The translations under genes were made by a program, and so were the position numbers. Of a DNA stretch of 46,818 nt, positions 2-12,747 are shown piece after piece; within the stretch, counting starts at the first letter, position 1; the number at the start of each line of letters is the position of its first letter. Origin of the DNA: Scytonema tolypothrichoides VB-61278 (GTDB taxonomy: Bacteria; Cyanobacteriota; Cyanobacteriia; Cyanobacteriales; Nostocaceae); assembly GCF_000828085.3 (NCBI RefSeq), contig NZ_JXCA02000002.1, forward strand, positions 410,453 to 457,270, read 5' to 3'. The notes under the pieces are model-generated. The model was not told the origin of the DNA and made no database searches. It was given only the letters and a program-made list of their open reading frames with translations.

Positions 2-1264
2 GGAGAACAAGATTATATTGAAATTGTCAGTCGGGATAAAGACGAGCAAAAGTTTTTAGAAACTTTGAGCGCAACTGAAAATATAGATATTTCTACTGCT
101 GTTGAACGCAAAGGTTGGGAAGGTGACTTTGGAGAGAAGTACATAAGACAACCAATTAAGCCCAAACTAAGTAATGAGTTGGGTGATGGTTCGACAAATA
201 TTTACTCAAACTCCTTTAATTCTGCAAATTTTAGTCATCCAGCCTTACCCTCATCTGGAGGCGCAATTATCCGGACTGGCGCTTCAGCAATAACTCAATC
301 TTCAAACAATTCACGGAGGTTACCTCTTGCACAAATAAAAGACTTAAAACCATTACACCGTCTTGCAACACTGGAAGAAATTAGTGGATTCTTCCGTCTT
401 GTCATTCCTGGGAATACTCCAGTTCCAGGTATGGCGACAACTCGCTTGCGTAACAGCACTGCTGAGGAAATCTTCAACAACTATAAACACCTGATGACAA
501 AAGACGAATATATAGTTGGTTTAGATGATGAAAATCATCCTGTAACATCTAGCTGGAGTGAAATTCCCCATCGCCTAGTAGCTGGGGTACCTGGCGCAGG
601 AAAAAGCAATTTTCTGAAATGGATCATTTTCCAATTCTTATACGTTAACCCAAAACGTACTGTTTATATTGCTGATTTCGGTGGAGTTGACTTTCAATGG
701 TTAAATCATATGGGAGTTCATGTTGAGATTGAGACAATTCCAGAGAATTGTCCAAATTTAGTAGATAAAATTCATCAGGAAGAATACGAAAGACGCTTAC
801 AGTTAATGCAGGAGTATGGAGTCTCTAACCTTAAAGAATTGCAGGACGAAGGAGTTGAAATTGACCGTACACTCTGGATTATTGACGAAGCCGCTGACAT
901 TGCAGATGTTTCCAGTAAACTGCGCGATACCATTGAAAAGCGACTAAAAGAGTATGCTCGTAAAGGGCGTAAATATGGAATTCATGTCATTTACTGTACC
1001 CAAAGACCAACAACTGAAGTTATAACTAAACAAGTAACAGACCAATGTGAAGAAAAAGTCGTTTTTAGGGTGAGTCCAGATGCTAGCTATCGGATATTAG
1101 AAGATGCGATCGCAGGCGATATACCCAAAGATGCTAAAGGTAGAGCTTATTTGAATGGTTATGCTGGTCAAATGTTTGTGAATACTCCTCTCATAAAAAT
1201 GCCTATTGGCTCAAAAGTCAAAATATCTGACACTCTTTGGGCTAATATTCACATCAACAAATAA
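2..1264 (+). CDS. FtsK/SpoIIIE (HerA-FtsK class) ATPase, 5'-truncated by the window edge
   Basis: The reading frame is open from base 2, so the gene starts outside the window; the TTG at 65 is only the first start-like codon. Counting from that codon, a low-complexity region (to about residue 90) precedes a RecA-like motor: Walker A GVPGAGKSN near residues 174-182, a strand reading YIADFGGVDFQWLN, Walker B LWIIDEAADIAD near 268-279, and a sensor segment IHVIYCTQRPTTEVITKQV, typical of FtsK 'TQRP' motors. Such motors pump DNA or, in type VII-like secretion, protein. No membrane segment or FtsK gamma domain is visible in this part. It lies 31 bp upstream of two small helical-protein genes on the same strand, probably one operon. 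It is not the housekeeping FtsK as far as seen: the motor is short and the context is accessory. Confident for the ATPase class, not for the function. Confidence 0.85.
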   Translation, partial: GEQDYIEIVSRDKDEQKFLETLSATENIDISTAVERKGWEGDFGEKYIRQPIKPKLSNELGDGSTNIYSNSFNSANFSHPALPSSGGAIIRTGASAITQSSNNSRRLPLAQIKDLKPLHRLATLEEISGFFRLVIPGNTPVPGMATTRLRNSTAEEIFNNYKHLMTKDEYIVGLDDENHPVTSSWSEIPHRLVAGVPGAGKSNFLKWIIFQFLYVNPKRTVYIADFGGVDFQWLNHMGVHVEIETIPENCPNLVDKIHQEEYERRLQLMQEYGVSNLKELQDEGVEIDRTLWIIDEAADIADVSSKLRDTIEKRLKEYARKGRKYGIHVIYCTQRPTTEVITKQVTDQCEEKVVFRVSPDASYRILEDAIAGDIPKDAKGRAYLNGYAGQMFVNTPLIKMPIGSKVKISDTLWANIHINK

Positions 1265-1295
1265 ATCTTTTTGAAAAATAACTGGAGATACTTAC

Positions 1296-1514
1296 ATGAG
1301 TCTTTCATCCGATATTGAAGAGTTCCGTTCAATGATTAGTAGAATTGTTGACCAACTTGAGGAAATTAATTCATCATCTAGAACCATTCCTGAAACCGAC
1401 GTAAATCAGCTAAGTAGAAAATTTTCAGGACTTATGGATAATTTAGGAGAAATAGACAGGGAACTACGCTCTGCGACTGATGCACTTGAAGATGTCCGCT
1501 CACGTTGGGGCTAA
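1296..1514 (+). CDS. 72-residue helical protein ending in Trp-Gly, first of a tandem pair
   Basis: The product is unrecognised. It is 72 residues long, acidic, and predicted by eye as two amphipathic helices (about 4-26 and 34-68) around a Ser/Thr/Pro turn, ending in RSRWG. The ATG is preceded by CTGGAGA at a normal distance. The next gene begins with a homologous module of exactly the same length: both start M-[ST]-L-[ST]-x-DIE-[EQ]-F, share LEE[IV]N at residues 21-25, and put WG at 71-72. A small helical hairpin encoded directly after an FtsK-type ATPase recalls the WXG100/ESX arrangement, but no WXG sits in the turn, so that is only an analogy. It could equally be an adaptor subunit of the ATPase. 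Confidence 0.7.
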   Translation: MSLSSDIEEFRSMISRIVDQLEEINSSSRTIPETDVNQLSRKFSGLMDNLGEIDRELRSATDALEDVRSRWG

Positions 1515-1518
1515 AAAA

Positions 1519-2292
1519 ATGACTCTTACTGATGATATAGAGCAATTCCAAACGCATACTGCTAAGTCAAGCGAAACATTAGAAGAAGTCAATCAGCTTG
1601 CAAATAAGCTTTTTGAATGTTCCACAGATGAATTAGCCTCACTGTTCGCTAAAATAGAAAGCTTATGCGATCAAGCCCAAATTGAAATTAAATATACTGC
1701 TGATTGTCTCGTTGAAATTAATAAAAGTTGGGGTTCTGCACCTCTCCAGCATTATTCAAATAAGCAACTCAATACTAATAAGGCGACTGTCTCAACAGTT
1801 AAAGGTGAACATTCATCTGCGCAATCAACAACCGTATCTGAGAATGAGACTAAACAAGTAGAATCTGGTGATTTAGCACCTCTGATTGAGCAAGCTAAAG
1901 AACTTTTAGACAAGGCTGTAGATGTATGTGGAGAATTTCTCAATGAAGCTGTTAAGACTGGTAAAAATCTGCAAGCAAGTCTGATGATAGTAACATCGCT
2001 TACGAGTGGATTTCTTACAAAAACAGTTAAGTTTGTTGATGATGTTGTCGATGGAATTTCATCATCAATAGAAATAAGTAATCGTGTTGTGTCTCAGCCG
2101 GGTATGCCCTTATCAGAAAATTCCTCGTTTGCAGTCATCAAAGAAATATCAGATAAAACTGAGGAGTATTTTGGCGTAGATGGTGAGCTAGCGGCTGCAT
2201 ACGAGATACAGAAAGACCAAGAAGAAAAGGAAAGAAAAAGAAAGGGTGCTGCACAATCAAGAGATGATTCTCGTGGGGCAAGTAGTAAATGA
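1519..2292 (+). CDS. Protein with N-terminal 72-residue Trp-Gly module and long helical C-terminal extension
   Basis: I place the start at ATG 1519, 4 bp after the previous stop; an in-frame start at 1480 would add residues overlapping the upstream gene and break the alignment with it. Residues 1-72 are a paralogue of the preceding protein (DIEQF near the N-terminus, LEEVN at 21-25, NKSWG at the end). Residues 73-125 are Ser/Thr/Asn-rich linker. Residues from about 126 form helices with a more hydrophobic stretch (SLMIVTSLTSGFL) that is too polar for a confident membrane segment, and the tail is charged (EEKERKRKG). It is probably co-transcribed with the ATPase. No known family was recognised. 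The architecture suggests module duplication followed by gain of an effector or anchoring region. Confidence 0.7.
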   Translation: MTLTDDIEQFQTHTAKSSETLEEVNQLANKLFECSTDELASLFAKIESLCDQAQIEIKYTADCLVEINKSWGSAPLQHYSNKQLNTNKATVSTVKGEHSSAQSTTVSENETKQVESGDLAPLIEQAKELLDKAVDVCGEFLNEAVKTGKNLQASLMIVTSLTSGFLTKTVKFVDDVVDGISSSIEISNRVVSQPGMPLSENSSFAVIKEISDKTEEYFGVDGELAAAYEIQKDQEEKERKRKGAAQSRDDSRGASSK

Positions 2293-2348: not shown

Positions 2349-4109
2349 TTAACTTCTTAGATATCCTCTAAGAAATCTGTTGCGGTACTCTCTATAAGCC
2401 TGATTAATTGCTTGCATTGCAGCTTTTGCCTGGGTAGAACTGTTGACATCAGGATGGTATCGCCTTGCTAATCTCAGGTAGGCACGTTTTACATCCTTTG
2501 GATTGTCAGTCTTTTCTACACCCAAAACTTCCCACCATTCTCCAGATGGTATAAACTCAAGTATGGATTCATCACTTTCAGAGATTTGACGCCAAATCTT
2601 AATGGTGCCGCTTTTTCCACCACTCACCAGCGTCTTGCCATCATTACTGAAGGCAACGGGACTGCACCCAGAAAGAGTTTGTAGCAGTTGCCCAGTTCGT
2701 AAATTCCAAATATTAATGATACCGTCTGCGCTGCTACTTGCAAGGGTTTGTCCATCTGAGTTGATGGCAACAGATACAACCGATGCTGAGTGTCCATTTA
2801 GAGTTTTGAGCAATTCTCCAGTGTGGAGATTCCACAGTTTGATGGTAGTATCTGTACTACCACTAATTAGAGTTTGATTATCAGGACTAACAGTAACTGT
2901 ATTCACTGCTCCTGAATGTCCTCTGATAATATGAGATTGCCCCCAATTTTTTAAATCCCAAATTCTGATAGTTTTATCAGCGCTTCCACTGGCAAGAATT
3001 TCGCCATTGGGACTAAAAGCAACAGACAAAACAGCGTAGTCGTGTCCATTCAAGGTACGTTTTAGTTTTCCTGTATATCGTCCCCAAATTTTGATAGTCT
3101 TATCGGCACTACCACTTGCTAGGATTTTTCCGTCAGGGCTAAAAGCAACTGAATAAACAAAGCCATTATGACTGTAGGGAGAGTTCAAATCAAAGAGTGT
3201 ACTGAGAAATTTTTTTGTGTCTAAATACCAACTGCTGATTTTACGAGCGACACCTCCACTGACAAGTGTCTTACTATCGGAGGTGATAGCAATAGATAAA
3301 ACCGCCTCTTCAAGCCCTGCGAAAGTGTAAAGCCATTTTCCTGTTTTTAAGTTCCATAGACGAACTGTTGTGTCATTGCTTGCACTAGCTAGGGTTTGGC
3401 TATCGGGAGTGATGGCGATCGCATTCACCCCAGCTGTATGTCCCCTAAGAATCTGGACACATCTCCAAGTTTCAGATAATGCTTCTTTGGGAAAGACAAC
3501 TTCTGCTTTAATATTAGGAGGAGAAGTTTGAGTTTTTTTGTGCAATTCTTTCTTGAGCATCTGTAACTCATCCTCAACTTCCAGAGCGGCAAATTTTTGA
3601 TTGAGATCTTCACCAGTCAAAAATGCTTCTAACTCCATCACGGCTGCAGAATAAGCATCCATCTGCAAGATTTTCTCTTCCATCCTGTCGAAAACCTGTG
3701 CTGGTGTTTCTCTTGTTCCGGTTTCGTCTAACAACTTGGCAATACCATAGGCGGCGAGTCCAACCACTGCACCAATTCCTGCCATAGGAACTGTGCCAAT
3801 ACCAAAAGCTAAACCTATTTTGGGTGCGACTAATCCCACACCACCAACAACACTAGAAACACCAGCACCGCCTATTGCGCCAATTCCCATTGCACCATAA
3901 GCAGCTGCATCTCCCTCTCCTATTGCCCTAAAAACACCAAAAGCAGCAGCACCAACGACAGCGCCAGCACCGACTACAGGAACTGTGCCAATTCCAACTG
4001 CCCCAAATCCTCCGGCTAATCCCATCCCGCCTACTGTTGCAGAAACACCAGCGCCTGCTATGGTTCCTCCTGCAATAAATGCTGCACCAGTTTTGGAGTT
4101 GTGTGTCAC
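2349..4109 (-). CDS. Glycine-zipper / seven-bladed WD40 / J-domain protein
   Basis: 586 residues in three parts. Residues 1-130 are two copies of a Gly/Ala/Val-rich zipper (pattern AGGTIAGAGVSATVGG) likely to insert in or associate with membrane. Residues 136-195 are a charged probable coiled coil. Residues 218-515 hold seven WD40 repeats (blades ending VRLWNL, IKIW, IRIWDL, IKLWNL, INIWNL), enough for one closed propeller. Residues 524-586 are a J domain with the Hsp70-stimulating HPD at 552-554. The zipper is shared with the separate protein at 5012-5419. The start is GTG with GAGGA 9 bp upstream; an ATG at 4138 opens a 10-codon frame whose TGA overlaps this GTG, so either a coupled leader peptide or a small indel in an A-run is possible. 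Likely role: recruiting an Hsp70 to a membrane-bound complex (inference). Confidence 0.85.
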   Translation of the reverse strand: MTHNSKTGAAFIAGGTIAGAGVSATVGGMGLAGGFGAVGIGTVPVVGAGAVVGAAAFGVFRAIGEGDAAAYGAMGIGAIGGAGVSSVVGGVGLVAPKIGLAFGIGTVPMAGIGAVVGLAAYGIAKLLDETGTRETPAQVFDRMEEKILQMDAYSAAVMELEAFLTGEDLNQKFAALEVEDELQMLKKELHKKTQTSPPNIKAEVVFPKEALSETWRCVQILRGHTAGVNAIAITPDSQTLASASNDTTVRLWNLKTGKWLYTFAGLEEAVLSIAITSDSKTLVSGGVARKISSWYLDTKKFLSTLFDLNSPYSHNGFVYSVAFSPDGKILASGSADKTIKIWGRYTGKLKRTLNGHDYAVLSVAFSPNGEILASGSADKTIRIWDLKNWGQSHIIRGHSGAVNTVTVSPDNQTLISGSTDTTIKLWNLHTGELLKTLNGHSASVVSVAINSDGQTLASSSADGIINIWNLRTGQLLQTLSGCSPVAFSNDGKTLVSGGKSGTIKIWRQISESDESILEFIPSGEWWEVLGVEKTDNPKDVKRAYLRLARRYHPDVNSSTQAKAAMQAINQAYREYRNRFLRGYLRS

Positions 4110-4637: not shown

Positions 4638-5015
4638 TTACTTTTTAAAGAAACGCGCTCCCTTACCACGATTGCAATCTGTACACAGTGTTTGTAAGTT
4701 GCTGAGGTCATTACTGCCACCTTTGGAAAAAGGCACGATGTGGTCAACTTCTAATTGCATTTGCTGACTAGTACGACCACAAAAAACACATTTGTAACCG
4801 TCTCTGTGTAAAACTGACACACGAACTGATGCGGGAATGTGGCGGGAGCGTTTAGTACTATCTTGCTTTGGTTTAGCTCGGGATTTGATAGCAGCAGACT
4901 TTTTCACCTTTGGCTTTTTAGATTTATCAGCATTTTGACTGTTAGCCTGATGAATCAAATCCCGGATAAAACCACGCACTAATTTCTGGACAGGATTGGG
5001 AGTCTGTTTTGTCAC
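4638..5015 (-). CDS. HNH endonuclease
   Basis: 125 residues. The first 60 are Lys-rich and likely bind nucleic acid. Residues 60-121 are a compact HNH fold: zinc-type CxxC at 76-79, DH at 91-92 with catalytic His92, Asn106, and a second CxxC at 111-114. This is the McrA-like HNH arrangement used by nicking and restriction-type nucleases and by mobile-element nucleases. The start is a GTG that overlaps the TGA of the upstream zipper gene (GTGA), implying translational coupling and an approximately stoichiometric partnership. Substrate and biological role cannot be read from the sequence. Confidence 0.85.
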   Translation of the reverse strand: MTKQTPNPVQKLVRGFIRDLIHQANSQNADKSKKPKVKKSAAIKSRAKPKQDSTKRSRHIPASVRVSVLHRDGYKCVFCGRTSQQMQLEVDHIVPFSKGGSNDLSNLQTLCTDCNRGKGARFFKK

Positions 5016-5419
5016 GACTTATCAAACAGCTTTTTCAAACCATAAGCTGCTAGTCCAACTACCGCGCCAGCTGCTATAACAGGCGCAGCACCAATAGCAA
5101 CAGCAGTTCCTCCAACAGCTAAACCCATACCTCCAACTACAGCAGAAACTCCAACTCCAACTGCTGCTCCTCCTGCAACTGCACTTATAGCTGTGGCGTC
5201 TCCCTCTTCTATTGCTTTTTTCGCTCCATAAGCAGCTGTGCCAATAACTGCACCAGCAGCAGTCACAGGAGCCATACCAATTGCTACGCCTCCAAAACCT
5301 CCAACTAATCCCATACCACCAACTACTGCGGATACACCAGCACCCGCTATAGTTCCTCCAGCTACCAATGCTGTACCTTCTACTTTATCTTTCTGTTCTT
5401 CGTTCTGATGGTTTGTCAT
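5012..5419 (-). CDS. Stand-alone glycine-zipper protein
   Basis: 135 residues: a short charged head (NEEQKDKVEG) then two tandem ~50-residue Gly/Ala/Val repeats, each containing a GVSAVVGGMGL core and a short charged linker (KKAIEEGDAT, KKLFDKS). It is homologous to residues 1-130 of the WD40/J-domain protein two genes downstream. Glycine zippers pack membrane helices and occur in pore-forming and envelope-stress proteins. It is first in the minus-strand unit and overlaps the HNH gene by four bases. Alternatives: a membrane anchor that docks the other zipper protein, or a pore. No specific function can be assigned. Confidence 0.75.
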   Translation of the reverse strand: MTNHQNEEQKDKVEGTALVAGGTIAGAGVSAVVGGMGLVGGFGGVAIGMAPVTAAGAVIGTAAYGAKKAIEEGDATAISAVAGGAAVGVGVSAVVGGMGLAVGGTAVAIGAAPVIAAGAVVGLAAYGLKKLFDKS

Positions 5420-6881: not shown

Positions 6882-9800
6882 TTAAGCTGCTATATCTTGC
6901 CCAAACTCTGTCAAGAACCTGAATGCTTTGACAACATAGCTGGCGCACTCTCTGGGAGAGGTGTTGTAAAACGATCGCCAAGCACTGGCTTTATCTTCAT
7001 CATAGCGATCGCTTCTTTTCGGATGATTTTCTAACCATGCTAATCGCACAGCATGACCAACTAACACATCCAAAACGATATATTCTTCAATTTGTAAGTT
7101 GGGGTTGTTGGATGCAATTGCTGCTAATTCTGTTAATGCCTCAATATTAACTTGTCGGTATTCGGGAGCCTCAATTTTATTTAGCAAATGCTCTACTTGC
7201 AAGGCAAAATTCTTTTCTCCTGCTGTCATTTCTGATAAAATGACTTCGCTATCCAAACGGTTGCGGCGTTCTAGCTTATCGCCAATCACTAAGCCTTTGC
7301 AATGTTCCATCACTAGCCAAACTTGCTTGAAAAAGTCTTTTGGAACACGTCCTGTTGCTCCCTCGGCTTGGCGGAACCGTCGCCAACCGCCTGATGGAAC
7401 ATCTATTTCATCTCCTTTGGATGGTGCTACCATCCAATCTATGTCACTTTCTTTTTGTTTGACGTGCAGAGATTCTTGCTGGCGTAATTGCTGACTCATG
7501 CTGACGTATTCAAATAATACCTGACGTAGCCGTGTTTTCACTTCAAAAGGTGACAGTTGCATGAGGTGTTCATAAGCCTCATCCTGAGTGAGATTTAACT
7601 CTTGTACCAGTTCGCTGGTAATCAACAGAATCATGTAACCAACTCTGAGTGTGAGTAGTCCTTTAAACAGTTCTGGTTCTGTCTTGATTAAAGCACTGAG
7701 ATAAATTAGAATTTCTTGAGTCAGAACGCGATCGCTTATATCTTCCCGACAAAAGTCATTAATTTTCTCAACAATTTCGCTATGCGACAGAGGAAGAGTG
7801 ATGAGTGAATCTTCGCTATAAGCTTTACCCACAGCAATTTGCTTACCGCGCACCACAATACTTGTCACCACGTCCGACAAGCCAATATCGTTCATTTGTC
7901 GTAACCCAGCAGCACGGCGCACAACTGCCCAAACGCCGGAATCACCTGCTTTAGTGTAAACTTCATCCAGCAAATCTGCTACAGTGACGGGGCGTCCAGG
8001 TCCACCAAAGCCTGTATCAAATTCTAACCCTTCCAAACGAACTAAAGTTTGCAATAACTCTATTTGCTCGTAGAGATTCTCTGATGAACGCAAAGAGGAA
8101 AGCAACAATCCTAAGTTTGTTTCACACTCCATTTGGAATTCTTGAGTATGCTTTAGGAGCCAATTCCCTTCTGGATTGTAAATCAGATACGAACAGCGAG
8201 GCGCAGCATCTTTGATGGAAGATAGAGAATATTCAAAATCTTCTTGCAGAAAATCAATCCGTTGTGTTCCAGCAGTCAACATCAATTGATTAAGACGTCC
8301 CAATTTTACCCGTACACCGTTACAAACGCCGTCTTTCAGTTCTTGCATGAGAGCAAGTAATGCCTCACTACCTGTTTCCAACATGGTGTGAGTTAACATT
8401 AAAGTGAGGATAGGACGCCCTAAATCAATCCAGTATTTTTGAATGTAAGCAAGTTCACTTCTGATTTGATAGACCAAAAAATGGTAATCAAGAGTTAAGT
8501 AAAACACTTGAGCATCCAAAAACGAGGGCAAAAAGACAACTGTCTCGCCACGAATACGAAAAATCTTAGATGTTGTCAGACTTCTCAAACGTCGGACTGG
8601 ACGTCCTGTTAAACCAAGTTTATCGTTACGTCCAACTTGGGTATAAATAGCTGAAAGATCATCTGCTTGTCGGACTTGAATTGGTTCTACTTGCTTGGGT
8701 GTTTGTGTTTCAATCCCATGAACTGCCAGTTTTGCTTGTAAATCTTCATCTTCTGCAAGTAAAGCGATTTGTACGACAGCTTGCTGGTTTTTACCGATGC
8801 ATAAATACCTTCCCAATGGGTCAATATCTCCAACAGCTATCAAACCTTCACTTAACATTTGACCGAGAAAATACAAACTCTGCGCCCACACAAGAGGAAG
8901 ATTCTCGTTAGGTAAACGCGGCTGACTTTGAGGTTCTAACTTCTCTGCTTCTACAGATTCTTCTGGAACATAAAAAAGTTCTGGAACAAGATGTAAACCA
9001 TCACGTTCAATCAATAAAGATTCTAAACGCTCTTGGTAATGTTTCACTTGCGCTTGTTCACCGCGAAACAAACCATCTAGAAATAAATAGGTGAAAAATA
9101 AAGGCCATTCACACTCAATATGCTCGAATTGTTTGAGTTCCAATGGTTCGTAATGCAAGCGGTTTTTATCTTCTAAAACTGTCTGGTGTCCATCACGCAA
9201 GAAGCGCTTGCAGCCGTATTTTCCTTCAAGTTTATTGATAATATCATTGCGAGTGCGTTCTCGCAGTTCCACATCTTCTACAGCAAATGCTGGAAAACTA
9301 ATAACGCTCAACAGCGCCGCATCGATTTCTTTTGATGACGATTCTCTTGGTAATAGAGATTCTAGCGTAATCCTGGCACGAGCAATTTCATCTGGTAGCG
9401 CGTGAATAACCGATGCTTGACAACCATGTACGCCAAATAAATCCAAACCATTAATCGCTTCCAATGCAGCTTTTGCCATACCTATAGAACTGGCATTTAA
9501 TTCTGCATTGCCATGATTAATTTTATTACCTCGTTCCCAAATACCGTAATCTGGAGTACGGTACGCTCGTCCAATGTAGTAAACTAAATTTTGGACGAAA
9601 TTCACTTCATCAAATGTGTAAATGATCTGCAATCCTGAAGCAGTCATTTGCGCCAATATCAGGATAAATATTGATGTCGCATCTAATTGCAAATGTCCCC
9701 ATTCGTCATCACCAACAACAATATCACCCGTAGCTGTGTTGTACTTGGCGTGTAAAGCATCCAACGGAGACTGAGTGTGCTTGAATTGCTCTAATTTAGC

Positions 9801-10097
9801 ACTTTGACGCATCATGGCAAACAACAAGCCCCGCATCAGCTTAACAACGCTGTGTTCTAGCTCATATTTGCGTCCTTTGTCTTCGTCAACTTTGCGGTAG
9901 GCGATCGCCAACCCCCACACTGCCAGAATACTGTAAACGTTATCACGTACCCAAGCATCAGTATAATCGCCGTGGGCAGTTATCGCCGTACTTGCTGGTA
10001 ACAAACCTGTAATTGGGTTCTGACGAGCAAGGATAATTGTCTTAATTTGCTGATAATAACACTCAAGACGAGCTTGCAGTTGAGTGGCTGTTTTCAT
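6882..10097 (-). CDS. GH15-fold protein related to the phosphorylase kinase alpha/beta subunit
   Basis: 1071 residues. The N-terminal ~420 residues form a GH15 (alpha/alpha)6-barrel-like region with family signatures AHGDYTDAWVRDNVYS, DDEWGHLQLDATS, QMTASGLQIIYT, YGIWERGNKINHGNAEL and ECEWPLFFTYLFLDG. These and the later blocks (GVWAVVRRAAG, EMTAGEKNFALQVEHLL, APEYRQVNIEALTELA) match the order of the regulatory alpha/beta subunits of animal phosphorylase kinase along nearly the whole protein. Known GH15 enzymes hydrolyse alpha-glucans; the cyanobacterial family is commonly annotated as a glucoamylase-like hydrolase, but the reaction is not proven by the sequence. A role in glycogen turnover is an inference. 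The ATG at 10097 begins MKTATQLQARLE. Apparently monocistronic. Confidence 0.85.
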   Translation of the reverse strand: MKTATQLQARLECYYQQIKTIILARQNPITGLLPASTAITAHGDYTDAWVRDNVYSILAVWGLAIAYRKVDEDKGRKYELEHSVVKLMRGLLFAMMRQSAKLEQFKHTQSPLDALHAKYNTATGDIVVGDDEWGHLQLDATSIFILILAQMTASGLQIIYTFDEVNFVQNLVYYIGRAYRTPDYGIWERGNKINHGNAELNASSIGMAKAALEAINGLDLFGVHGCQASVIHALPDEIARARITLESLLPRESSSKEIDAALLSVISFPAFAVEDVELRERTRNDIINKLEGKYGCKRFLRDGHQTVLEDKNRLHYEPLELKQFEHIECEWPLFFTYLFLDGLFRGEQAQVKHYQERLESLLIERDGLHLVPELFYVPEESVEAEKLEPQSQPRLPNENLPLVWAQSLYFLGQMLSEGLIAVGDIDPLGRYLCIGKNQQAVVQIALLAEDEDLQAKLAVHGIETQTPKQVEPIQVRQADDLSAIYTQVGRNDKLGLTGRPVRRLRSLTTSKIFRIRGETVVFLPSFLDAQVFYLTLDYHFLVYQIRSELAYIQKYWIDLGRPILTLMLTHTMLETGSEALLALMQELKDGVCNGVRVKLGRLNQLMLTAGTQRIDFLQEDFEYSLSSIKDAAPRCSYLIYNPEGNWLLKHTQEFQMECETNLGLLLSSLRSSENLYEQIELLQTLVRLEGLEFDTGFGGPGRPVTVADLLDEVYTKAGDSGVWAVVRRAAGLRQMNDIGLSDVVTSIVVRGKQIAVGKAYSEDSLITLPLSHSEIVEKINDFCREDISDRVLTQEILIYLSALIKTEPELFKGLLTLRVGYMILLITSELVQELNLTQDEAYEHLMQLSPFEVKTRLRQVLFEYVSMSQQLRQQESLHVKQKESDIDWMVAPSKGDEIDVPSGGWRRFRQAEGATGRVPKDFFKQVWLVMEHCKGLVIGDKLERRNRLDSEVILSEMTAGEKNFALQVEHLLNKIEAPEYRQVNIEALTELAAIASNNPNLQIEEYIVLDVLVGHAVRLAWLENHPKRSDRYDEDKASAWRSFYNTSPRECASYVVKAFRFLTEFGQDIAA

Positions 10098-10465
10098 AGT
10101 TAATTTTCTACTCTGTTTCCGGAATGCAACCCTGAGACGGTGAAGTAAATTATGTCAGCAAAACCAAAACCACCTTTGTAGTAGGCAGTTGTTTTGTGGA
10201 TCTAAATGAAAAATGAATCGTCGTCTCCTGTCAATATACAAGTTAGCTTTCCCATTTTTAAAGAAAGATACTCAAAATGTCAATTTTTTTCAAATCTTTA
10301 TCAGCAAGTCGGCTACTTTCTCTTTATCTTAAAATTAGTTTTGTTAATACTCAATAAGGAAAAACTTCTACATAATGCTCATCACACGGGGGAATTAACT
10401 AGATAAATTGTCGTTTCTAAAAACAGAAAACACATATAGAAGTACTCTTTTTGAAAAAGAGTTAA

Positions 10466-10603
10466 TTTCTGTTTATACGTTATAACCAAGATAATTCTCC
10501 ACTAAGAAAAGTTGTTTACTCCCAAGTTAAAGTCAACGGCAAGACTGAACTGATACCAATCGAGTTATATGCCGATGGCTCACTTGAGCTGATTATTGTA
10601 TAA
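10466..10603 (+). pseudogene. Orphan 45-codon frame, possible remnant of a small protein gene
   Basis: The frame lies between two stops and has no ATG, GTG or TTG at a sensible place, yet its last part reads like a real beta-rich protein end: VYSQVKVNGKTELIPIELY, then ADGSLELIIV and a stop. A perfect hairpin follows 33 bp later, as after a real gene. It may be the 3' end of a decayed small gene. No family recognised. Confidence 0.3.
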
Positions 10604-10635
10604 AAACTAAAATTTCAGATTCCTCCTCAGATTAT

Positions 10636-10662
10636 CCTCCCATAACCAAAAGTTATGGGAGG
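10636..10662 (+). terminator. Perfect 11-bp hairpin
   Basis: CCTCCCATAAC and GTTATGGGAGG pair perfectly around the loop CAAAA. The following bases (TTACTTAATATTTC) are only moderately T-rich. Its position after the orphan frame suggests a terminator on the plus strand, though it could be a repeat element. Confidence 0.5.
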
Positions 10663-10734
10663 TTACTTAATATTTCTTGCAAGCAACGCTCGGTAATATC
10701 AAGTGCAGCAAATAAGAGCTCGCTTTGCTTGCTT

Positions 10735-10870
10735 GCAGAGAACAAGGGAGAAAAAGAATTATTGTCCATTAGCTCTTTTCTCCTCATATAGGATGCTCCC
10801 CACTCCCCTGCTTCTTTTTTTCTCCCCCGCTTCCTTCCCCTGTTCCCTCTGTCTCTGTGTTTCTTCGTTG
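10735..10870. repeat. Polypurine/polypyrimidine interspersed repeat (copy 1)
   Basis: On the plus strand the tract runs from AGAACAAGGGAGAAAAAG to CTCCCCACTCCCCTGC and further C/T-rich sequence. The same order (ACAAGG-rich part, then CTCCCC-rich part) recurs in the ccmM-ccmN gap and inside ccmN, and is a familiar junk-repeat type in filamentous cyanobacteria. Confidence 0.5.
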
Positions 10871-11301
10871 ACAACATGCCCCAAAAGTGTGGAAATTGCC
10901 GCGAATTCTCAATCTAGATCCACTGGCTTATGGTTGTGATCTCATACACGAGCAGTAGAAAAGGATGACTGCGCAAGTTGTACGCGAACGCCGCCTTTGC
11001 GATCGCTCGCCTAAAGTGAAAATTTTGCCAGAAAATAATATTATCATTAGCCTCCAGTAAAAATCTTTACTTGAAAAAAATTCTCCAGAAATCAACTTGT
11101 ACGCTTGACACAGACACTCAGAGTAGTAAAATCTACACAAATCAATAGGCATCAGGGTGATGAAAGATTCAACTGAAGTGGAATTGAACTTTCATTTTCT
11201 GACTTTCGGTATCTACCGGATAACACTATTCCGGGTTAGGATTATGAATTAGCGATGCCATTTAATTAATTGGTAATCGATGTTGAATTTCTGAGATTTT
11301 A

Positions 11302-11391
11302 TGGACCGAAGTCCACAAGACGGCAGTACTAACCTCCTCTGATCTGGCGAGTTTGTCTCCCAGCGCGGGGGAGGCATTTGGAGGTTTGATC
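11302..11391 (+). promoter_or_regulatory. Structured mgtE 5' leader that can sequester the Shine-Dalgarno
   Basis: Directly upstream of the mgtE ATG (11392), AACCTCC at 11331-11337 is the exact reverse complement of GGAGGTT at 11380-11386, which contains the ribosome binding site. Inside, TCTCCC (11356-11361) can pair with GGGGGA (11367-11372). Upstream, TGGAC and GTCCA (11302-11315) form a hairpin with CGAA loop. Together this looks like a cis-regulatory RNA in which the RBS is alternately hidden and free. A metal (Mg2+ or Mn2+) ligand would fit the gene, but I do not recognise the M-box or yybP-ykoY consensus, so the ligand is unassigned. Confidence 0.55.
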
Positions 11392-12747
11392 ATGCTCATG
11401 CAAGACGTTCGCAATTCGGCTGTTGACATTGCTGACTTAAATCAGCTCAAATTGGATTTGAATGGTACACAACCGGTAGATGTGGGAGAGTACATTACAC
11501 AATTGCCCGAACAACAGCGGGCGATCGCATTCCGTTTACTCAATAAACACCAAGCAATTGATGTCTTTGAATATCTACCTTCAGAAGTACAGGAACAAAT
11601 CATAAATTCCCTGCACGATGTTCAAGTTGCACAAATTGTCGAGGCGATGAGTCCCGATGAACGTGCAGAATTGTTTGATGAGTTACCCGCTGGAGTTGTC
11701 AAACGCCTGTTGCAAGAACTGAGTCCAGAAGAACGGCAAGCCACAGCAACGATTCTCGGCTATGCTGAAGGCACCGCAGGACGCGTGATGACAACAGAAT
11801 ACGTGCGGTTGCGGGATGGATTGACTGTCGGAGAAGCTTTGAGTAAAATCCGCCGTCAGGATGAGGATAAGGAGACGATTTACTACGCCTACGTCACGGA
11901 CGATAACCGCAAGCTGGTGAGTGTTGTGTCGCTACGACAGTTACTGTTTACCTTTCCTGAAGTTCTGATCAGAGATATCGCTAGCACTCGCGTCATTAAG
12001 GTAAGAACAGAAACGCCTCAGGAAGAAGTTGCCCAAATGATGAAGCGATATGACTTAATCGCTGTCCCTGTGGTTGACCGAGAAGAGAGACTGGTGGGTA
12101 TTGTCACAATTGATGATGTGGTGGATATTTTGGAAGAAGAAGCCACAGAAGATATTCAAAAACTGGCGGGTGTGAGTGGCGGTGATGAACAGGCTTTTTC
12201 GTCTCCTCTGATAACTCTTCGCAAGCGCTTACCGTGGCTATTTGGAGTTATGTTGCTCTATATTGGAGCATCTAGTGCGATCGCTCCTTTTCAGTCAACA
12301 ATTTCAATGGTGCCAGTGCTGGCTGTGATTATGCCGCTTTTCTCCAACACAGGTGGTACTGTGGGTATTCAAGCTTTAACAGTGACAATTCGTGGACTTG
12401 GTGTGGGAGAAATAACACCCGAGGATACTTTCAAAATTCTCCGTAAGGAACTTCAAGCAGGATTGGGTACAGCGGTAGCACTAGGACTGACTATGGTTAT
12501 GCTTTCCTTGATTTGGGCACCACCTCAAGAACGTTGGGTGTCGTTAATTGCAGGAACGGTGATGGCAATCAATACTCTTGTAGCTGTCACTTTAGGGACT
12601 TTACTACCAATGGGCTTGAAGCGACTCAAACTTGACCCAGCCTTGGTTAGTGGACCTTTGGTGACAACAATGCTAGATGCCGTTGGTTTTATGATTTTCT
12701 TAACGCTGATTTCTACGGCTTTGCATGTTTTCGACTTAAAACCATGA
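11392..12747 (+). CDS. mgtE: Magnesium transporter MgtE
   Basis: I take ATG 11392, 7 bp after GGAGG, rather than the longer TTG frame from 11353, giving 451 residues. The order is typical of MgtE: an N-terminal superhelical domain (LPEQQRAIAFRLLNKH, VAQIVEAMSPDERAELFDEL), two CBS domains (around VGEALSKIRRQDED and MMKRYDLIAVPVVDRE), a plug helix, then five membrane segments starting LPWLFGVMLLYIGASS with NTGGTVGIQALTVTIRGLG, the pore-lining motif of the family. MgtE is a Mg2+-gated inner-membrane Mg2+ channel; cytosolic Mg2+ bound by the N and CBS domains closes it. The structured leader upstream suggests translational control as well. Confidence 0.93.
   Translation: MLMQDVRNSAVDIADLNQLKLDLNGTQPVDVGEYITQLPEQQRAIAFRLLNKHQAIDVFEYLPSEVQEQIINSLHDVQVAQIVEAMSPDERAELFDELPAGVVKRLLQELSPEERQATATILGYAEGTAGRVMTTEYVRLRDGLTVGEALSKIRRQDEDKETIYYAYVTDDNRKLVSVVSLRQLLFTFPEVLIRDIASTRVIKVRTETPQEEVAQMMKRYDLIAVPVVDREERLVGIVTIDDVVDILEEEATEDIQKLAGVSGGDEQAFSSPLITLRKRLPWLFGVMLLYIGASSAIAPFQSTISMVPVLAVIMPLFSNTGGTVGIQALTVTIRGLGVGEITPEDTFKILRKELQAGLGTAVALGLTMVMLSLIWAPPQERWVSLIAGTVMAINTLVAVTLGTLLPMGLKRLKLDPALVSGPLVTTMLDAVGFMIFLTLISTALHVFDLKP

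What the first reader, a model, noticed from the sequence alone, without database searches (positions are those of the whole stretch)
2..2292. FtsK-type ATPase operon with a duplicated 72-residue Trp-Gly helical module
Seen: the two genes after the ATPase begin with modules of exactly 72 residues sharing DIE[EQ]F, LEE[IV]N and a terminal WG; the second carries a 185-residue extension. Known: small helical hairpins next to FtsK-like motors are the hallmark of type VII-type secretion. Inference: this could be a compact secretion, DNA-handling or conflict system using WG rather than WXG adaptors.
Basis: partly seen in the sequence, partly recalled or inferred. Interest (0 to 1): 0.7.

Follow-up and report, generated by a model that had tools for sequence, protein, structure and literature searches.

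The report
Cyanobacterial ATPase-driven polymorphic toxin cassette
A four-gene cluster in a cyanobacterium, whose relatives carry interchangeable bacterial toxins with matching antidotes, looks like a small ATP-driven toxin-delivery system that resembles, but does not belong to, type VII secretion; the copy in this genome carries a tip of unknown function.

Summary
In detail: gene C (72 aa) and the first 72 aa of gene D are homologous modules behind an FtsK-type ATPase (gene B). Sequence left of the window adds a fourth gene, A (HEAT-like, hydrophobic C-terminal segments). All 28 distinct loci mapped with this ATPase keep the order B-C-D; 25 show A upstream.

The new finding is the tip of D. 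Outside the window's family it is exchanged: MafB19-type deaminase followed by Imm1, EndoU followed by MafI, GIY-YIG, and tips without a library match. Orphan toxin-immunity cassettes occur. Two genomes with 95.9% identical ATPases carry unrelated tips. MafI was found in 8 of 24 cassette genomes, one copy each, always inside the cassette. This is the signature of a polymorphic toxin system.

Most likely B and A export D, with C as partner, in a type-VII-like way. But the T7SS tests (ATPase domain number, membrane anchoring, WXG100, YukD) were not met, so it is not filed there. Export itself is untested. The window copy has an uncharacterised helical tip and no recognised immunity gene, so its own cargo is open. 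The literature searches listed returned no description of it.

The parts
2..1264 (+). Gene B, FtsK/EssC-like ATPase, C-terminal 420 of 683 aa (N-terminal part lies left of the window, L005 11666-13717)
   Evidence: PF01580 58.8 bits > 24; complete ORF in L005
584..607 (+). Walker A of gene B (GVPGAGKS)
   Evidence: read in sequence; G, G and K columns invariant in 12 of 12 aligned B proteins
872..889 (+). Walker B of gene B (LWIIDE)
   Evidence: read in sequence; D and E invariant in 12 of 12
1296..1514 (+). Gene C, stand-alone 72-aa helical module ending in WG; presumed partner or adaptor
   Evidence: directly after B in 28 of 28 loci
1519..1734 (+). Gene D, N-terminal 72-aa module homologous to gene C
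   Evidence: predicted hairpin H3-30, H36-71, pLDDT about 70
1735..2292 (+). Gene D, 185-aa C-terminal tip, predicted helical at low confidence, function unknown; occupies the position held by toxin domains in relatives
   Evidence: no Pfam or NCBIfam family above cut-off; same tip in a cousin operon; mean dN/dS 0.49

Best explanation
The feature is one copy of a conserved four-gene cassette of cyanobacteria: A, a HEAT-like protein with hydrophobic C-terminal segments; B, a soluble FtsK/EssC-type ATPase with one recognised ATPase domain and its own N-terminal domain; C, a 72-aa helical hairpin; and D, the same hairpin fused to an exchangeable effector tip. Proposed mechanism: C and the D module pair as homologous hairpins; this pair is the address that B recognises; A holds B at the cytoplasmic membrane; ATP hydrolysis by a B ring moves D out of the cell, or into a neighbour, where the tip acts; sibling cells are protected by the immunity gene that follows D. 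Shown: gene order, homology of the modules, hydrophobic segments in A and none in B or D, toxin tips, immunity genes, orphan cassettes and tip exchange in relatives. Inferred: pairing of C with D, docking, recognition by B, export, and killing of competitors. In the window copy the four reading frames are open (apart from a few ambiguous bases in B), but the tip is of unknown activity and no immunity gene was recognised.
For: Order B-C-D in 28 of 28 distinct loci with this ATPase, A upstream in 25; the other three are G424 and G765 (contig ends) and UBA999 (B itself 5'-truncated). Tips: MafB19-deaminase 36.9 and 39.8 bits (cut-off 27), each followed by Imm1 at 52.3 and 40.2 (cut-off 22.4); EndoU 44.2 (cut-off 25.3) in G765, followed by MafI 58.4 (cut-off 31); GIY-YIG 23.9 (cut-off 22.6) in G379, 20.0 (below) in UBA2566. 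Orphans: EndoU 40.3 (G506) and CdiA_C 45.7, cut-off 26.6 (G417); MafI 58.3 behind the former. MafI in 8 of 24 cassette genomes, one copy each, all 8 inside the cassette; 0 of 14 control genomes (places compared). Exchange: G696 and G712 have B 95.9%, C 97.2%, D module 87.8% identical and unrelated tips (E 0.43); G765 tip matches the G506 orphan (86%) and their MafI genes match (97%); G424 tip matches the G551 orphan (78%) and the following genes match (47%, 6e-54). By hydropathy A has at least one membrane-like segment in 20 of 24 loci scored; B none in 29 of 29 rows; D none in 29 of 29 (28 distinct loci). Mean dN/dS in the window's family 0.19-0.49.
Against: No export, outer-membrane step or killing was observed, and no gene for crossing the outer membrane was recognised in the cassette. 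By sequence the closest solved relative of B is a 'DNA translocase coupling protein' (6o1w, 98.6 bits), ahead of FtsK (73.0) and the T7SS ATPase YukB (63.5). Models of defence ATPases match the ATPase part about as well (SspH 64.4, mad8 64.0 bits over most of that model). The window's D has no recognised toxin, and none of the 6 cassettes of its family has a recognised immunity gene (ORF lists; two same-strand neighbours scanned: a 79-aa ORF in G092 without a match and a recombinase in G134; Imm1 sought in 5 and MafI in 3 of the 6 genomes, none at the cassette). A cousin ATPase with the same N-terminal domain sits in an operon with an Hsp70 gene and carries the same tip, which would suit an intracellular role. 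MafI also follows D proteins with other tips, so toxin-immunity matching is imperfect. Most neighbours proposed as immunity genes have no library match. The GIY-YIG call is marginal. The 'REase-like' tip is my reading of a PD..DxK-like motif; 3 of its 7 members were scanned without a significant hit. One D-module pair reaches dN/dS 1.06. The model of B is unusable (pLDDT 39.8).
Confidence: 0.6

Rival explanations
1. Intracellular conflict system: A and B form a membrane-associated sensor that holds D through the hairpin module and releases the effector inside the cell on phage attack; the immunity gene acts as an antitoxin.
For: Nuclease and deaminase effectors suit it; the ATPase part matches defence ATPase models (SspH 64.4, mad8 64.0 bits, several HerA models); a cousin ATPase sits beside an Hsp70 gene and others beside Hsp70- or kinase-like genes read by eye; no outer-membrane component recognised.
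Against: Orphan toxin-immunity cassettes and tip exchange. EndoU with MafI (PMC4287609) and CdiA_C (PMC3482391), passages read, are known from delivered polymorphic toxins. A dedicated, co-travelling immunity protein is what neighbour-killing needs.
Confidence: 0.2
2. The window's copy is a toxin-less derivative: the tip is a structural or membrane-acting part shared with a chaperone-linked cousin machine, and the operon serves a housekeeping role in Nostocaceae. This can be true of the window copy while the best explanation holds for the cassette family.
For: Tip conserved at 59-89% identity to the window's in the other 5 cassettes of the family, no recognised immunity gene, no toxin family; same tip on a different duplicated helical module in G092 (E 6.8e-10), in an operon with Hsp70.
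Against: Patchy distribution (7 of 192 family genomes) and a decayed second copy in the own genome argue against housekeeping. Membrane-depolarising T7SS toxins exist (abstract starts seen), so a toxin is not excluded.
Confidence: 0.3
3. DNA translocation: B is a conjugation-type coupling protein and C and D are accessory factors.
For: Best PDB sequence match of B is a DNA translocase coupling protein.
Against: No relaxase or mating gene recognised by eye in the mapped loci (not searched by family); no B homologue in 72,556 plasmid records at E 1e-15; toxin tips are unexplained.
Confidence: 0.05

Closest known systems
Type VII secretion (T7SSa/b, Esx, LXG toxins with Lap partners)
   Same: FtsK-superfamily ATPase; small helical protein encoded next to an effector that begins with a helical domain; variable toxin tips with immunity genes. 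Lap proteins form complexes with LXG domains as targeting factors (PMC9600955, abstract).
   Different: One recognised FtsK domain instead of several; B lacks membrane segments; no WXG100 over cut-off in 14 genomes; no linked YukD; a HEAT-like membrane protein instead of the Ecc/Ess set; WG at the end of helix 2; host is a diderm cyanobacterium.
Solo WXG with three-domain YueA-like ATPase in cyanobacteria and others (Zhang et al. 2012, PMC3482391, footnote; passages read)
   Same: FtsK/HerA ATPase with a small helical partner, in cyanobacteria.
   Different: [quoted passage not shown] here one FtsK domain is recognised and toxins are attached.
Maf system (MafB/MafI)
   Same: EndoU-type tip, MafI-family immunity, extra toxin-tip cassettes (PMC4287609, passages).
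   Different: MafB has its own N-terminal domain, and some MafB have a putative signal peptide; an ATPase cassette is not part of what I read.
Type-2 cousin cassettes (1011-1079-aa ATPase; G092, G053, G054, G041, G023, G327, G608, G107)
   Same: N-terminal domain of B shared; two coiled-coil-like proteins follow the ATPase; in G092 the window's tip is shared.
   Different: Different ATPase part (HerA-like), different helical modules, no toxin recognised by eye; one A-like protein carries FKBP.

Membership tests
FtsK/HerA ATPase superfamily (gene B) | FtsK_SpoIIIE domain with Walker A and B | tested here: met
   PF01580 matched in 12 of 12 members scanned; window copy 58.8 bits > 24; motifs invariant
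Type VII secretion system | Membrane-bound EccC/EssC ATPase with several NTPase domains (PMC11217815, Discussion read) | tested here: not met
   0 of 29 B rows show a membrane-like segment by hydropathy; Pfam marks ATPase-type matches only in the C-terminal half of the window's B
Type VII secretion system | EsxA-type WXG100 protein | tested here: not met
   Gene C 16.6 bits against a cut-off of 27.3; 0 of 14 cassette genomes over cut-off, two with weaker hits (21.0 and 19.4 bits); control over cut-off in 1 of 14
Type VII secretion system | EsaB/YukD ubiquitin-like protein | tested here: not met
   1 of 14 genomes over cut-off (G424, in a 937-aa ORF on another contig), none beside a cassette
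WXG100 family | WXG in the turn of a ~100-aa hairpin (position recalled, not from a call) | tested here: not met
   72 aa; predicted turn at 31-35, WG at 71-72 at the end of helix 2, pLDDT about 70; below the family cut-off
Polymorphic toxin system (cassette family) | Constant N-terminal module with exchangeable C-terminal toxin domains | tested here: met
   in relatives
Polymorphic toxin system (cassette family) | Immunity gene directly downstream, and orphan toxin-immunity cassettes | tested here: met
   Imm1 and MafI over cut-off; orphans, in part of the relatives
Polymorphic toxin system (window copy itself) | Recognisable toxin tip and immunity gene | tested here: not met
   no family over cut-off for D; next gene is an antisense WD40/DnaJ-domain gene
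Any secretion system | Export of the substrate dependent on the ATPase | not testable with these tools
   needs an experiment

The most novel reading that the evidence does not exclude
A previously undescribed protein-export machine of diderm cyanobacteria: a soluble single-domain FtsK-type motor docked on a HEAT-like membrane protein, which delivers polymorphic toxins addressed by a duplicated 72-residue hairpin, and which arose separately from type VII secretion by the same logic.
Probability: 0.45. Interest if true: 0.85.

Novelty: new variant of a known kind. Interest (0 to 1): 0.72.

Why it matters
For toxins associated with T7SS neighbourhoods, PMC3482391 (passage read) names only firmicutes, actinobacteria and chloroflexi. 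A four-gene toxin cassette with an FtsK-type motor in diderm cyanobacteria would show how small such a system can be and would separate the essentials (motor, paired hairpins, tip) from the lineage-specific parts. It also gives a concrete, testable route by which cyanobacteria may compete with each other, and candidate new toxin and immunity families.

Tried and rejected
Filing the module as WXG100: below cut-off, aligned to the second helix only. Filing the system as T7SS: fails on ATPase domains, membrane anchoring, WXG100 and YukD. PADLOC: the ATPase part of B matches SspH (64.4 bits, a small part of that long model), mad8 (64.0 bits, most of the model) and HerA models; C gives 19.5 bits to part of PbeC; not taken as membership because the rest of those systems was not seen, but kept as evidence for the intracellular rival. 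Weak module hits outside ATPase loci (E 1e-4 to 1; E 3e-4 to 7e-4) were treated as chance coiled-coil similarity: for three of them (G054, G057, G151) I looked at 15-19 kb around and found no B; the rest were not followed. The G308 D extension looked similar by eye to the window's tip, but the comparison failed (probability 5%; tip profile E 0.6). Fold search with the D model: no match at E 0.001 or better. The structure model of B was too poor to use. The WD40/DnaJ neighbour as a cassette part: rejected, since among the mapped loci it flanks only G000 and the fragment in G111. Plasmid-borne spread: no match. Occurrence outside Cyanobacteriota was not tested properly; the one genome-contig scan used two narrow peptide patterns and found 7 loci.

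G564 and G551 are nearly identical; both count in the 28 loci, but G564 was left out of the 27 and its A was not scored. G111 (ATPase fragment at a contig end) is not counted in the 28. UBA999 is counted although its B is 5'-truncated. G735, G597 and G592 are reported apart. Rows of the module profile used come in part from genomes it then searched: 7 of the 24 hit genomes supplied rows, 17 did not as far as the handles show.

Full report
OBSERVATION. The window starts inside an ATPase gene. Searches confirm three consecutive plus-strand genes: B (2-1264, open at the left end), C (1296-1514, 72 aa) and D (1519-2292, 257 aa). C and the first 72 residues of D share the quoted motifs and both end in WG; they are 25% identical. 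The window lies at G000 C2:410453-457270. The stretch to its left (L005) completes B to 683 aa and shows a further upstream gene, A, of 644 aa with weak HEAT matches (22.5 bits, below the cut-off of 27) and hydrophobic C-terminal segments.

IS THE DUPLICATION REAL. A profile of 27 C proteins recovers the D module in 27 of 27 D proteins, over 69 to 72 of its 72 positions, at 16.5 to 63.7 bits. Shuffled D modules (5266 scored of 5400) reach at most 10.7 bits. Counting the printed rows, WG closes the D module in 20 of 27 and G is kept in all 27; C ends in WG in 18 of 27, and 1 more ends RWGR. In the predicted D model the module is a hairpin, helices 3-30 and 36-71, pLDDT about 70, with WG at the end of the second helix. 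In WXG100 proteins the motif lies in the turn between the helices (recalled knowledge), so the resemblance to WXG is only nominal.

CONSERVED CASSETTE. Searches of the family (7 of 192 genomes with the ATPase at E 1e-30, the own genome and a contig-end fragment in G111 included), of the phylum (386 genomes) and of the order (21 of 388 genomes at E below 1e-234; the best E of any other genome is 4e-55), with the named loci, gave 28 distinct loci that I mapped. All 28 have C and D directly behind B, and 25 have an A homologue upstream; G424 and G765 lie at contig ends, and in UBA999 B itself is truncated. In the reverse direction, the module profile found 24 of 376 order genomes at E 1e-10 or better. 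Of these, 21 have the ATPase, G735 has it cut at the contig end, G597 has a 5'-truncated D next to a transposase ORF, and G592 has a fragment of A and no B in 18 kb. I saw no intact stand-alone module operon. Seven of the 24 genomes supplied rows of the profile.

THE TIP OF D IS EXCHANGEABLE AND IS A TOXIN IN RELATIVES. Pfam hits over cut-off: MafB19-like deaminase in G377 and UBA999, each followed by an Imm1 immunity protein; GIY-YIG in G379 (just below cut-off in UBA2566); EndoU in G765. A free EndoU gene follows D in G506 and a free CdiA_C gene follows D in G417. The 88-aa gene behind EndoU is a MafI-family immunity protein in both G506 (58.3 bits) and G765 (58.4 bits; cut-off 31). A genome-wide search found MafI in 8 of 24 cassette genomes, a single copy each time; comparing places, every one lies in the cassette. 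Imm1 was found over cut-off in 3 of 14 genomes: in G377 inside the cassette, in G149 and G089 elsewhere in the genome. Several other small genes behind D (for example those of G417, G424 and G761) have no significant library match and are immunity genes only by position.

TIP SWAPPING. G696 and G712 have B 95.9%, C 97.2% and D module 87.8% identical, but their tips are unrelated (E 0.43). The G765 EndoU tip matches the orphan of G506 (86% identity), and the MafI genes behind both are 97% identical. The G424 tip matches an orphan in G551 (78%), and the genes behind both are related (47%, E 6e-54). One tip is named by eye only: that of G506, G417 and five others has a PD..DxK-like motif; 3 of the 7 were scanned (G417, G506, G761) without a significant library hit.

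HOW IT PROBABLY WORKS. By hydropathy A has at least one membrane-like segment in 20 of 24 loci scored; in two of the other four (UBA2566, G586) a small separate ORF with such segments lies between A and B. B and D have none in 29 of 29 rows each (28 distinct loci). B is thus a soluble motor that would need a membrane dock, and A is the obvious one. C and D-module, as homologous neighbours, probably pair; this resembles the complexes of LXG toxins with their Lap partners (PMC9600955, abstract read). The tip, being swapped together with immunity genes, is the cargo that acts on competitors. Steps shown: gene content, order, homology, hydrophobic segments, toxin and immunity families, exchange. 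Steps inferred: pairing, docking, recognition, export, killing.

THE WINDOW'S OWN COPY. Its tip has no library hit, is 59-89% identical in the other 5 cassettes of the family and changes as expected under purifying selection (mean dN/dS 0.49; B part in the window 0.19, C 0.35, D module 0.45 with one pair at 1.06, A 0.39). No immunity gene was recognised: the next gene here is antisense; in the five relatives the ORF lists show two same-strand neighbours, a 79-aa ORF in G092 without a library match and a recombinase in G134; Imm1 (5 of the 6 genomes sought) and MafI (3 of the 6) are not at these cassettes. The tip profile hits one other full-length protein: a 351-aa protein of G092 whose first 177 aa resemble the preceding 177-aa gene (30%, 2e-19), behind a 1046-aa ATPase sharing the N-terminal domain of B. 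The logic 'helical partner, then the same helix module plus tip' therefore exists twice with different modules. In one search the same profile also hits the remnant in the own genome and, weakly (E 7e-4), G115, which was not followed. Whether this tip is a toxin without a recognised antidote or a structural part is open.

COMPARISON WITH KNOWN SYSTEMS. T7SS is defined by a membrane-bound multi-domain EccC/EssC ATPase, a WXG100 protein and usually a YukD-type protein (PMC11217815, Discussion read). All three were tested and not met. Zhang et al. [quoted passage not shown] The present cassette differs on both counts. Literature searches whose listed rows (titles and starts of abstracts) gave no description of it: 1 of 1 listed; 1 of 1; 20 of 51; 10 of 10; 20 of 141; 25 of 25; 12 of 17; 15 of 243; open-licence PubMed Central only. 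The passages of PMC7159879 that I read describe NTP-dependent conflict systems without this cassette; those passages are not the whole paper.

WHAT SPEAKS AGAINST. The best PDB sequence match of B is a DNA translocase coupling protein (98.6 bits), ahead of FtsK (73.0) and YukB (63.5). Defence ATPase models match its ATPase part at 64 bits. A cousin ATPase lies in an operon with Hsp70 (435.9 bits), and others near genes that look Hsp70- or kinase-like by eye, which would fit an intracellular role. MafI follows tips other than EndoU. No outer-membrane component was recognised. The structural models add little.

VERDICT. A confirmed observation that leads to a new variant of polymorphic toxin system with a type-VII-like logic. 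Confidence 0.6 in the full export mechanism; higher, about 0.9, that the cassette family carries exchangeable toxins.

Noticed in passing
L006 about 8276-11544 (G000 C1 about 1404275-1407543): A second, decayed copy of the cassette in the own genome: A-like gene of 562 aa, B without its ATPase part, a shortened C, only the tail of D. It lies beside a serine recombinase gene (PF00239 40.4, PF07508 46.8 bits); G092 (intact copy) and G134 (A and B fused) have the cassette between the same flanking genes, with a similar recombinase.
   Followed up: partly
window 2349-4109 (-) and 5012-5419 (-): Glycine-zipper-like repeats (by eye), in the first gene joined to WD40 repeats (232 bits) and a C-terminal DnaJ domain (51.2 bits); among the mapped loci the gene flanks the cassette here and in G111 only.
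   Followed up: partly
L196 4556-14529 (G092): A cousin operon: 504-aa TPR protein with a DnaJ match just below cut-off (25.6 against 27.8), 1046-aa ATPase, 177-aa helical-looking protein, 351-aa protein (same module plus the window's tip), 651-aa protein, Hsp70 (435.9 bits).
   Followed up: partly
L098 5850-12683 (G041), L096, L097, L099, L146, L214: Type-2 cassettes: A-like protein (with FKBP domain in G041, 128.1 bits), 1044-1079-aa HerA-like ATPase, two coiled-coil-like proteins of about 125 and 181-189 aa; in L099 the A-like gene comes last. No toxin recognised by eye.
   Followed up: partly
L209-L213: Further large ATPases related to the type-2 ATPase beside genes that look Hsp70-like, kinase-like or glycine-rich membrane proteins by eye, in other Nostocaceae.
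   Followed up: no
L179 5817-10580 (G592): Decayed locus with a fragment of A, an orphan with a GIY-YIG-like motif (by eye), and a module-bearing protein that shares the pre-tip linker of G424 (E 9e-27) but ends in a different stretch.
   Followed up: partly
window 4638-5015 (-): Small HNH endonuclease gene (PF14279 59.7 bits against 27.5).
   Followed up: partly
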